This document shows positions 59,821 to 61,810 of a stretch of 64,000 bases of DNA, one piece after another; position 1 is the first letter of the stretch, and each line of letters opens with the position of its first letter. The stretch spans positions 62,001 through 126,000 of the forward strand of contig NZ_BBYK01000041.1 in NCBI RefSeq assembly GCF_001570365.1, in the 5' to 3' direction. Source of the stretch: Microtetraspora fusca. GTDB taxonomy: Bacteria > Actinomycetota > Actinomycetes > Streptosporangiales > Streptosporangiaceae. Below the pieces are notes generated by a model. The model made no database searches. It had not been told where the DNA came from and saw only the letters and a list, made by a program, of their open reading frames with translations. The position numbers and the translations under genes were made by a program.

Positions 59821-60417
59821 GTGCCGTACGACGCGGTGATCCTGGCCGGCGGGCACGCGCGGCGGCTGGGGGGACTGGACAAGCCGGCGGAGCCGGTCGC
59901 GGGGCGCTCCCTGATCGAGCGGGTCGCCGCGGCCGTGCCCGGCGCGCGGACCCTCGTCGTCGTCGGTCCCCCGCGTCCCGGGCGCGGGCTGGAGCGGGCC
60001 GTGCACACCCGGGAGGAGCCGCCCGGGTCCGGGCCGGTGCCGGCGCTGCGGGCCGGGCTCGCCCTCGTCACGGCCGACGAGATCGCGCTGCTCGCCGCCG
60101 ATCTGCCCTTCCTGACCGCGGATCACGTGACGGCGCTCCGCGCCGCGGCGCGGGAGGCGGGCGCCGCGGGCGCCGTGCTGGTCGACGACGAGGGCGCCGA
60201 GCAGTGGCTGACCGGCGTCTGGCGGACGCGGGCGCTCCGCGAGGCGCTCGCCGGGTACGACGGACACTCGCTTCGTGGTGTGCTCGGCCCGCTCGAACCG
60301 GTGACCGTCCGCCTCGCCGCGGAGGCCGGCGGGGGCACCCCCTGGTTCGACTGCGACACTATGGACGATCTCGACCGGGCACGCCGGACTCGAGTGACGA
60401 GCGAGGAGACCGCATGA
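59821..60417 (+). CDS. mobA: Molybdenum cofactor guanylyltransferase MobA
   Basis: A 198-residue nucleotidyltransferase that attaches GMP to molybdopterin. The N-terminal loop VILAGGHARRLGGLDKPAEPVAGRSLIERV is the MobA signature (LAGGxxxRxGxxKP). The metal-binding LLAADLPFLTADHV and the GxWR-type WLTGVWRTRAL follow. I place the start at the GTG at 59821, which yields a canonical N-terminus, although no good ribosome site is visible. The stop overlaps the next start (ATGA). The MobA fold is complete despite its compact length. Confidence 0.88.
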   Translation: MPYDAVILAGGHARRLGGLDKPAEPVAGRSLIERVAAAVPGARTLVVVGPPRPGRGLERAVHTREEPPGSGPVPALRAGLALVTADEIALLAADLPFLTADHVTALRAAAREAGAAGAVLVDDEGAEQWLTGVWRTRALREALAGYDGHSLRGVLGPLEPVTVRLAAEAGGGTPWFDCDTMDDLDRARRTRVTSEETA

Positions 60418-60671
60418 ACGTGCTGGAGGAGTGGACCGCCCTGGTCTGCCGCGAGCTGGGCGTCGACCCCGCGAAGGTGGATCGCACGGCGGTGCTCGAC
60501 CTGACCCGTGACGTGGCCCACGGCGTGGCCCGGCCCGCCGCGCCGCTCACCGCCTATCTGCTCGGCCTCGCCCAGGGAGCGGGCACCGCCCCCGAAGACG
60601 CGTTGGAGCGCCTCTCCGCCATGGCCCGTAACTGGGAGCAGGCGACGACCGAAACCCTCAAGGACGCCTGA
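60414..60671 (+). CDS. DUF6457 domain protein
   Basis: An 85-residue small helical protein. The sequence VLEEWTALVCRELGVDPAKVDRTAVLDLTRDVAHGVARPAAPLTAYLLGLAQGAG is the DUF6457 pattern found next to, or fused to, MobA in actinobacteria. It is coupled to mobA by the ATGA overlap. An accessory role in molybdenum cofactor guanylylation is suggested by this fixed partnership; no catalytic residue is evident. Confidence 0.85.
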   Translation: MNVLEEWTALVCRELGVDPAKVDRTAVLDLTRDVAHGVARPAAPLTAYLLGLAQGAGTAPEDALERLSAMARNWEQATTETLKDA

Positions 60672-61034
60672 CCGCGGATCCCGTGGCGGCGCCCCGGCCG
60701 GGATGACCGCACTCGGGGTCCGACACATCAAGCCCTGCTGCGCGCGGCCCGTACGGCGCCTCGCTGCGTTGCCCCACCCGCGACTTTCCGTGGGCCCGCG
60801 AGTGGCGGCCGGAGGCTCCGCTCCGGCCTTCTCCTCCGCCTTGGGCGGCGCATCCCGTCGGGATCCACGCCCGCTACGGGCAGCATTTGTCAGGCACTCC
60901 CTGACCCCGCCGGACGCCCTGGACGGCCGCTGCGGGGCCCGTCCGGGCGAAGGTCGCGGAAATATCGCGACACGCTGTGAAAACGATGTGTTCGCGGAAA
61001 AGCGGGAGTCTGTTCGAATTAAGGCGAAATTCCA
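60672..61034. other. Gene-poor intergenic region
   Basis: I see no gene here that I can support; the open frames lack ribosome sites and homology. It contains the second repeat copy (60753-60795) and several short GC-rich hairpins, for example GTCAGG-cactc-CCTGAC near 60890-60906. The right end, from about 60958, turns AT-richer and leads into the small RNA terminator on the minus strand. Confidence 0.6.
60753..60795. repeat. Intergenic repeat copy 2 (after the DUF6457 gene)
   Basis: Shares acggcgcctc (60753-60762) and gccccacccgcga (60771-60783) with the copy at 59768-59815. The two copies lie 985 bp apart, flanking mobA-DUF6457. Divergence in the middle suggests an old or degenerate element. 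Confidence 0.5.
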
Positions 61035-61154
61035 GAAAAAAGAAGGGCGACGCCGGGTGGTTACGGGGGCAAACCACCCGGCGCCGCTTCATCGGCGTTC
61101 CGACGGGGGCCCGGAACGCCGGCACCAGCGCTCCGACGGGGGACCAGAGCGCTT
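61035..61154 (-). ncRNA. Candidate 6C-type small RNA (three hairpins with C-rich loops)
   Basis: On the minus strand three stem-loops follow one another: AGCGCTC/GAGCGCT (61153-61127), GGCGTTCCG/CGGAACGCC (61120-61094) and CGCCGGGTGGTT/AACCACCCGGCG (61083-61051). Every loop contains CCCCCGT, although the stems are unrelated in sequence. The last hairpin is followed by CTTCTTTTTTC, a textbook intrinsic terminator. Upstream, TACAGT (61166-61161) and TTGACG (61192-61187) form a promoter whose start would fall at the first hairpin. The architecture fits the actinobacterial 6C RNA motif (hairpins with C-run loops). The loops here have five Cs. No protein frame explains the region. Confidence 0.85.
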
Positions 61155-61199
61155 GGCTAAACTGTACACCTACAACCCATGGGATGCGTCAAGAGTTTG

Positions 61200-61520
61200 T
61201 CACGACCCGATCTCGCGTCGATGCCGTGGTATCTCGTTTTGGTTAGCTTCCGTCGTTTCCATGGGCGAGGGTTGCCCTTTCCCTCGCTCATTGGCCCCGA
61301 TCACGGCAAGGTACGGCAAAACCACGGCTCCCCCGACGAGTAGCGCCCGCACGAACCACGGCGCCGGCACGGCGACGGCGAGGACGAGGCACACAAGACG
61401 GATGGACATCTTGATCACGTAGCTGATCTCGCGGCGCCGGATGTCCTCAGACAGCGATGGCCTGGCGTCCGTAACCTTGTGTACTGTCCGGTTCCGGCCC
61501 AAAAGCTTCACAAACTCCAC
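61200..61520 (-). CDS. DUF3099 family small membrane protein
   Basis: A 106-residue protein with two membrane helices (about 36-54 and 58-76). The segment VTDARPSLSEDIRRREISYVIKMSIRLVCLVLAVAVPAPWFVRALLVGGAVVLPYLAVIGAN is the DUF3099 pattern known from streptomycetes and relatives. The GTG at 61520 is used here; the GTG at 61511 is an alternative and no strong ribosome site marks either. The tail is polar (KGQPSPMETTEANQNEIPRHR). Function unknown. The candidate small RNA starts 46 bp downstream of its stop on the same strand but has its own promoter. Confidence 0.85.
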   Translation of the reverse strand: MEFVKLLGRNRTVHKVTDARPSLSEDIRRREISYVIKMSIRLVCLVLAVAVPAPWFVRALLVGGAVVLPYLAVIGANERGKGQPSPMETTEANQNEIPRHRREIGS

Positions 61521-61597: not shown

Positions 61598-61810
61598 ATG
61601 TCGGACCGAACCTATCGGGTGACCGAAATAGTCGGAACTTCGGGGGAGAGCGTCGACCAGGCCATCCGCAACGGCATCCACCGCGCCGCCGAGACCCTGC
61701 GTCACCTCGACTGGTTCGAGGTGACCGAGGTGCGCGGCTACATCGAGAACGGCGAGGTGGCCCACATCCAGGTCGGGCTGAAGGTCGGCTTCCGCCTCGA
61801 AGACGCCTGA
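61598..61810 (+). CDS. Dodecin family flavin-binding protein
   Basis: A 70-residue dodecin, which assembles into a hollow dodecamer that stores riboflavin or FMN. The family pattern is complete: YRVTEIVGTSGESVDQAIRNGIHRAAETLRHLDWFEVTEVRGYIENGEVAHIQVGLKVGFRLE, including the flavin-stacking Trp in LDWFEV and the Gln in HIQV. The ATG follows GAGGGAGGA. It is a single gene ending in a strong hairpin shared with the convergent tldE gene. Confidence 0.95.
   Translation: MSDRTYRVTEIVGTSGESVDQAIRNGIHRAAETLRHLDWFEVTEVRGYIENGEVAHIQVGLKVGFRLEDA

What the first reader, a model, noticed from the sequence alone, without database searches (positions are those of the whole stretch)
61035..61192. Likely 6C-type small RNA with three tandem C5-loop hairpins and its own promoter and terminator
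Three adjacent stem-loops on the minus strand have unrelated stem sequences but near-identical 9-nt loop cores (xxCCCCCGT). Such covariation-like structure with fixed loops is the signature of a structured RNA. A TTGACG/TACAGT promoter predicts a start at the first hairpin and a T-rich tail follows the last, giving a transcript of about 120 nt. The 6C motif is known in actinobacteria; the present copy differs in that the terminator hairpin also carries the C-rich loop and loops have five Cs.
Basis: partly seen in the sequence, partly recalled or inferred. Interest (0 to 1): 0.8.

Follow-up and report, generated by a model that had tools for sequence, protein, structure and literature searches.

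The report
Uncatalogued three-hairpin C-loop small RNA
This looks like a short gene for a regulatory RNA with three hairpins that share one C-rich loop; it is conserved in related soil bacteria, with a two-hairpin version in Streptomyces, resembles the known 6C RNA in design without matching it, and may silence other genes by pairing with G-rich start sites of their messages.

Summary
On the minus strand at 61154-61036 lie three adjacent hairpins with CCCCCGU loops, behind TTGACG-N20-TACAGT and before a T-rich tail. A covariance model of it finds 145 of 150 sampled genomes of the same family. Seventeen of 35 stem pairs show changes on both sides, while the loops hardly vary. A two-hairpin form with the same loop core sits behind DUF3099 in Streptomyces, Kitasatospora, Jiangella and others. 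So this is a conserved structured RNA element, very probably an RNA gene.

It does not meet the tests for Rfam's 6C family: no Rfam hit in the window at gathering score, and no 6C hit at the locus at E up to 10. The same genome carries a genuine 6C RNA on another contig. I found no description of it in Rfam 15 or in the paper listings and passages I saw; supplementary sRNA tables could not be opened.

Best reading: a trans-acting sRNA that uses exchangeable C-rich loops to pair with G-rich ribosome-binding sites, as shown for B11 (6C). Transcription and targets are not shown; a target-word test gave no specific signal.

The parts
61036..61154 (-). predicted sRNA transcript (about 119 nt; 5' end inferred about 7 nt after the -10, 3' end in the T tract)
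   Evidence: sequence; fold; model R1 in 145 of 150 family genomes; no RNA data
61127..61153 (-). hairpin 1, 9 bp, loop GUCCCCCGU
   Evidence: 5 of 9 pairs with changes on both sides, 98.5% of cells paired; the outermost pair is broken in 9 of 66 rows
61136..61142 (-). loop core CCCCCGU of hairpin 1
   Evidence: GTCCCCCGT in 64 of 67 distinct rows
61093..61121 (-). hairpin 2, loop GGCCCCCGU; agrees with hairpin 1 at 21 of 27 positions
   Evidence: 5 of 10 pairs with changes on both sides, 100% of cells paired; similarity
61103..61109 (-). loop core CCCCCGU of hairpin 2
   Evidence: CCCCCGT in 65 of 67 distinct rows; last base C in 1; one C missing in 1
61047..61087 (-). hairpin 3, 16 bp, loop UGCCCCCGU; presumed terminator hairpin
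   Evidence: 7 of 16 pairs with changes on both sides, 8 that never vary, 100% of cells paired
61063..61069 (-). loop core CCCCCGU of hairpin 3
   Evidence: the 9 columns examined (TTGCCCCCG, set one column early) are identical in 67 of 67 distinct rows
61034..61046 (-). T-rich tail after hairpin 3 (CCTTCTTTTTTCT)
   Evidence: sequence; in 62 of 71 loci some 8-nt stretch after the hairpin holds at least 4 T, in 9 it does not
61161..61166 (-). -10 element TACAGT (family form TAnnnT)
61187..61192 (-). -35 element TTGACG, 20 nt from the -10
   Evidence: 20-nt spacer in 62 of 63 distinct upstream regions; the 63rd (L263) is only 28 nt long
61188..61214 (-). conserved upstream block GAGAT...TCGTGAC-N4-TCTTGAC; 11-bp direct repeat, possible activator site (inferred)
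61200..61520 (-). DUF3099 gene, directly upstream on the same strand; its stop codon lies inside the conserved block
   Evidence: PF11298, 80.7 bits; synteny
60414..60671 (+). DUF6457 gene, convergent downstream neighbour (context only)
   Evidence: PF20058, 90.1 bits
58736..59725 (+). moaA (radical SAM plus Mob_synth_C), syntenic marker (context only)
   Evidence: PF06463, 121.7 bits

Best explanation
It is a stand-alone gene for a trans-acting small RNA. A dedicated promoter at the end of the DUF3099 gene starts transcription at hairpin 1 and the third hairpin terminates it, so the RNA is little more than three rigid stems, each presenting a C-rich loop (core CCCCCGU, of which at least four Cs are open). 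Each loop can pair with a G-rich stretch at or next to a ribosome-binding site, blocking translation or destabilising the message; three loops make it multivalent or redundant. Shown here: the element, its covarying structure, loop invariance, promoter-like conservation, synteny and spread. Inferred: transcription, termination, pairing in trans, repression, and the targets.
For: Covariation: 17 of 35 pairs with changes on both sides and 99.6% of cells paired, with 0 of 500 shuffles as high on these two measures (7 of 500 on the number of pair types) and slid structures far lower; the same picture on the alignment not fitted to the model. Loops vary by 0.02, 0.095 and 0.00 bits against 0.26 for stems and 1.0 for linkers. 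Found in 145 of 150 family genomes. TTGA(C/T)-N20-TAnnnT in 62 of 63 distinct upstream regions. Not simply a leader of the next gene: the nearest detected downstream gene is convergent in 36 of 71 three-hairpin loci and 7 of 84 two-hairpin loci. The last four loop Cs are predicted open, and the loop words pair with GGGGG words at -11.8 to -19.9 kcal/mol, against -4.4 to -6.4 with one AAGGAGG word (and -12.1 for anti-SD with SD; isolated duplexes, loop strain ignored). Precedent: in M. abscessus B11, either C-rich loop suffices to repress eccB4 through a G6 tract at its ribosome-binding site, with compensatory mutations (PMC10470900, section 11 read).
Against: No transcript data were available. 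A crude test on 593 predicted genes (about 9.5% of the genome) showed no excess of ACGGGGG near starts (2 seen, 1.5 expected). GGGGGAC, complementary to the hairpin 1 loop, is the most enriched of the 42 words of that composition (10 against 1.9), but CAGGGGG, which is not complementary, is second (8 against 1.9), and AAGGGGG, AGGGGGA and GGGGGAA are enriched as much or more; the start calls were biased to Shine-Dalgarno-like sites. The GU end of each loop is predicted mostly paired, which weakens a role for it in pairing. Nine of 71 loci have fewer than 4 T in any 8-nt stretch after hairpin 3. Six of 20 distant matches that I read keep the C loop only in the last hairpin.
Confidence: 0.6

Rival explanations
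1. Protein-binding decoy: the repeated CCCCCGU hairpins are identical docking sites that titrate an RNA-binding protein, as CsrB-type RNAs do with GGA loops (comparison recalled).
For: Same loop motif repeated two or three times on stems that differ; the loop edges (G or U before, GU after the Cs) are kept along with the Cs although the GU is predicted mostly paired; no specific target word found.
Against: No partner protein known or sought here; the C-rich loops of B11 act by base pairing (PMC10470900, section 11).
Confidence: 0.2
2. Cis element: a terminator or attenuator array of the DUF3099 transcript, or a leader of the following small gene (CSAKGC protein) in Streptomyces and others.
For: The nearest detected upstream gene is DUF3099 on the same strand in 54 of 71 three-hairpin and 84 of 84 two-hairpin loci; the nearest detected downstream gene is CSAKGC on the same strand in 17 of 71 and 75 of 84.
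Against: In the window and 36 of 71 three-hairpin loci the detected downstream neighbour is convergent. The -35/-10 pair at fixed spacing is kept also in the 21 of 70 loci in which, by my reading, no DUF3099 frame ends at the promoter. Plain terminators do not need invariant loops or two extra hairpins (inference).
Confidence: 0.12
3. It is a diverged, duplicated 6C RNA (common descent with Rfam RF01066).
For: Same plan, tandem stem-loops with C-rich loops; the Streptomyces form L073 reaches 27.6 bits with the 6C model (E 0.072 in a 301-base search), below the cut-off of 47.
Against: No 6C match at this locus at E up to 10; no gathering hit in 19 other loci holding the element, while the 6C control locus L001 gave one; genuine 6C elsewhere in the same genome and over the cut-off in 49 of 61 family genomes; R1 reported no match in L001 at E up to 1e-8.
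Confidence: 0.08

Closest known systems
6C RNA (Rfam RF01066; B11 in mycobacteria)
   Same: Actinobacterial, about 75-120 nt, tandem hairpins with C-rich loops; likely the same way of acting.
   Different: Different locus and sequence; loop core CCCCCGU; three hairpins in this family; in the same genome as a true 6C; no 6C model hit at this locus.
C-rich-loop sRNAs of Firmicutes (RNAIII of S. aureus, cited in a passage of PMC3765725; RsaE and others recalled)
   Same: C-rich loops aimed at mRNAs.
   Different: No sequence or synteny relation known to me; not tested here beyond the Rfam scan of the window.
Streptomyces sRNAs scr5583 and scr1434 (PMC3765725, passages)
   Same: Expressed Streptomyces sRNAs with a C-rich loop.
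   Different: Described with one C-rich loop each and numbered after flanking genes that I take to be elsewhere. I could not open their sequence tables, so identity is judged from names only.

Membership tests
6C RNA (RF01066) | Covariance-model score at or above gathering (47 bits) | tested here: not met
   No hit in the window; none at E up to 10 in 60800-61400; best relative seen 27.6 bits
6C RNA (RF01066) | Two stem-loops, each with six or more Cs (definition as given in PMC8388888, passage) | tested here: not met
   Window: three stem-loops with five Cs in each loop. Streptomyces form: two, with runs of five and six Cs
6C RNA (RF01066) | Being the 6C locus of its genome | tested here: not met
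   True 6C at G000:C80, 56.5 bits; the element is at G000:C40
C-rich-loop trans-acting sRNAs (functional class) | Conserved C-rich loops on covarying stems | tested here: met
   last four Cs of each loop predicted open
C-rich-loop trans-acting sRNAs (functional class) | Independent transcript with own promoter and terminator | tested here: inconclusive
   Promoter-like elements conserved, T tail in 62 of 71 loci; standard scans report neither; no RNA data
C-rich-loop trans-acting sRNAs (functional class) | Represses mRNAs by loop pairing at ribosome-binding sites | not testable with these tools
   Word test not discriminating

The most novel reading that the evidence does not exclude
An undescribed core regulatory RNA of Actinomycetes: a second, independent C-loop RNA system beside 6C, inherited with the DUF3099 and moaA neighbourhood across several families, in which one lineage added a third loop. 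A promoter with a fixed 20-nt spacer and an 11-bp-repeat block that reaches into the end of a coding sequence would put it under one conserved activator, so that two C-loop RNAs, differently switched, share control of messages with G-rich start sites.
Probability: 0.35. Interest if true: 0.75.

Novelty: new variant of a known kind. Interest (0 to 1): 0.55.

Why it matters
If it is a gene, it adds a widely inherited regulatory RNA to a group rich in antibiotic producers, with no Rfam 15 family reaching its cut-off here. Because 6C and this RNA coexist with similar loops, they make a natural pair for asking how C-rich loops pick targets in G+C-rich genomes, a doubt raised in print for Streptomyces (PMC3765725, passage). 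The Streptomyces form can be deleted and tested in standard laboratory strains.

Tried and rejected
Rfam: nine sub-threshold hits in 60800-61400, among them mir-483, PsiU6-40, ncS035 and ar7, each far below its cut-off; taken as chance. Weak R1 hits in the class search: I fetched 20 of the 107 matching genomes. By eye 12 have two C-loop hairpins (L074 with CCCCCGG in the first, L070 with only four Cs in the last), 6 keep only the last one and 2 (L078, L079) have none and are false; so the 107 of 394 (E up to 0.01) includes false matches. Blast side hits L032 and L033 were dropped as chance. L024 and L031, cut by contig ends, and L029 and L030, with two hairpins, were left out of A1. L067, L075 and L099 were lost from A2 by my script's filter. 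Of the 118 stretches I read the 80 listed, not the other 38. L008 and L257 are one genome and both count among the 71 loci.

Regulon of the upstream block: the repeat with one mismatch in 11 relatives gave few other sites, against a reversed control that also rings (for G000 5 sites against 2); the ones I read did not convince me, so no regulon is claimed; L288 was fetched and not analysed. Target words: not discriminating. The phylum scan with model R2 (E up to 0.001, strict filters) found 13 of 396, all of the same class; I do not know how many of the 396 lie outside it. Literature searches showed me no description of this element; no held paper has the term DUF3099. One search rested on my recall that moaA is SCO1821 in S. 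coelicolor. Error of mine: the dodecin query was translated out of frame (61600 for 61598); the right frame is a dodecin. Those rows are not used, but in 8 of 71 loci such a row stands as nearest upstream hit.

Full report
What is there. The minus strand of 61036-61154 reads as three hairpins in a row, each with a CCCCCGU loop, behind TTGACG-N20-TACAGT and followed by CCTTCTTTTTTCT. The fold is far more stable than shuffles (z -5.3). Three C5-loop hairpins spanning 73 nt stand against 19 others scattered over 1.72 million strand-bases of the same genome, so chance is not a serious explanation. Hairpins 1 and 2 agree at 21 of 27 positions and look duplicated; hairpin 3 is longer and stands as the presumed terminator.

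It is a conserved structured element. A blastn search found it in 27 of 41 genomes: 24 of 25 of the same family (own included), 1 of 4 of the same order outside the family, 2 of 12 of the class. An alignment of 24 loci (A1; one of them, L022, from another family) gave 15 of 39 RNAalifold pairs with changes on both sides. With the structure I named, 15 of 35 pairs changed on both sides, 99.9% of cells paired, and none of 500 shuffles reached any of the five measures. On 71 loci, 67 distinct rows, fitted to the model (A3), 17 of 35 pairs do; one measure, the number of pair types, was reached by 7 of 500 shuffles, and the outermost pair of hairpin 1 is broken in 9 of 66 rows. A3 leans to the structure and includes the sequences of A1. 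Variation is 0.02, 0.095 and 0.00 bits in the three loops (the third window set one column early), 0.26 in stems and 1.0 in linkers. Model R1 finds 145 of 150 sampled family genomes at E up to 0.001.

A two-hairpin form exists in other families. R1 rings in 107 of 394 class genomes (E up to 0.01), the weak ones partly false: of 20 that I read, 12 have two C-loop hairpins, 6 only the last, 2 none. In Streptomyces the loops read CAUCCCCCGU and UCCCCCCGUG. The nearest detected upstream gene is DUF3099 on the same strand in 54 of 71 three-hairpin and 84 of 84 two-hairpin loci; most of the latter came through the pattern and are Streptomyces, so they are not independent. moaA was detected in 16 of the 20 distant loci. 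With a model of the two-hairpin form (R2) a phylum sample gave 13 of 396, all of the same class.

Promoter. In 62 of 63 distinct upstream regions TTGA(C/T) and TAnnnT stand exactly 20 nt apart; the 63rd (L263) has only 28 nt to read. A block GAGAY...TYGTRAC-N4-TCTTGAC, an 11-bp direct repeat, lies above. In the window the last codons and stop of DUF3099 form part of it. By my reading, in 21 of 70 loci no DUF3099 frame ends there (11 have no frame over 60 residues). Of these 21, 13 keep TYGTRAC exactly, 7 have GTA(A/G)T in its place and 1 (L017) neither; of the other 49, 43 keep it in register. So the block is probably a regulatory site and not only a coding constraint, with less certainty for its upper half. 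That an OmpR-type response regulator binds it is a guess from the 11-bp period. A search for further copies gave nothing firm.

Not shown to be a 6C RNA. The window has no Rfam hit at gathering and no 6C hit at the locus at E up to 10. The Streptomyces form L073 reaches 27.6 bits against a cut-off of 47. Nineteen other loci holding the element had no gathering hit, while the 6C control locus L001 did. The same genome has a 56.5-bit 6C on another contig, as do 49 of 61 family genomes over the cut-off, somewhere in the genome. For G015, G138 and G782 I compared positions by eye, and the two elements lie apart; I did not do so for the rest. So it probably works like a 6C RNA but is not filed as one.

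How it may work. The last four Cs of each loop are predicted open; the first C and the GU end are partly or mostly paired, above all in hairpin 3. As isolated words the loops pair well with GGGGG. In M. abscessus B11, either C-rich loop represses eccB4 through a G6 tract at the ribosome-binding site, with compensatory mutations (PMC10470900, section 11 read). My own target test does not decide: 32 of 593 crude genes have GGGGG at -20 to -4, against 8 with CCCCC and 114 with GGAGG; ACGGGGG is not enriched (2 against 1.5); GGGGGAC is (10 against 1.9), but no more than several purine-rich G5 words. One gene has a 9-nt match (ACGGGGGAC at -12, starting near L219:4565), which alone is weak. Base pairing in trans is thus an inference from anatomy and precedent; a protein decoy remains the main rival.

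Novelty. No Rfam 15 family reaches its cut-off here. In the paper searches I saw listings and abstract starts; they and the passages describe 6C, B11 and other Streptomyces C-loop sRNAs, and nothing that I could tie to this locus. Section 5 of PMC2422843 (read) lists predicted S. coelicolor sRNAs by coordinate, but I hold no S. coelicolor coordinate for this element, so it could not be compared. Only passages were read of PMC3765725, PMC4681348, PMC8388888, PMC6789036 and PMC12395582; of PMC11678152 passages and section 7. Supplementary tables of RNA-seq studies were not open, so the Streptomyces form may already stand in a list as a bare transcript.

Noticed in passing
window 61200-61214: The last codons and stop of DUF3099 coincide with the conserved promoter block of the sRNA; 13 of 21 loci without a DUF3099 frame there keep the same TYGTRAC, so promoter selection may dictate this C-terminus.
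   Followed up: partly
L068 and L085 (G187 and G177, both 68% complete): The C loop of the first hairpin is lost and the leader carries ACGGGGGC or ACGGGGGGC, complementary to the remaining CCCCCGU loop: possible self-pairing.
   Followed up: no
L073:1103-1315: A 70-residue protein with CSAKGC and WNNP follows the sRNA in Streptomyces and others; no Pfam family at E up to 0.001.
   Followed up: no
L035 and L036 (G000:C40:328864-328960): Tandem 30-bp repeat with CCCCCGT found by the triple-loop pattern; two frames of the 200 bases read are stop-free, so it may be a protein repeat.
   Followed up: partly
window 61598-61804: Dodecin gene (PF07311), divergent from DUF3099.
   Followed up: partly
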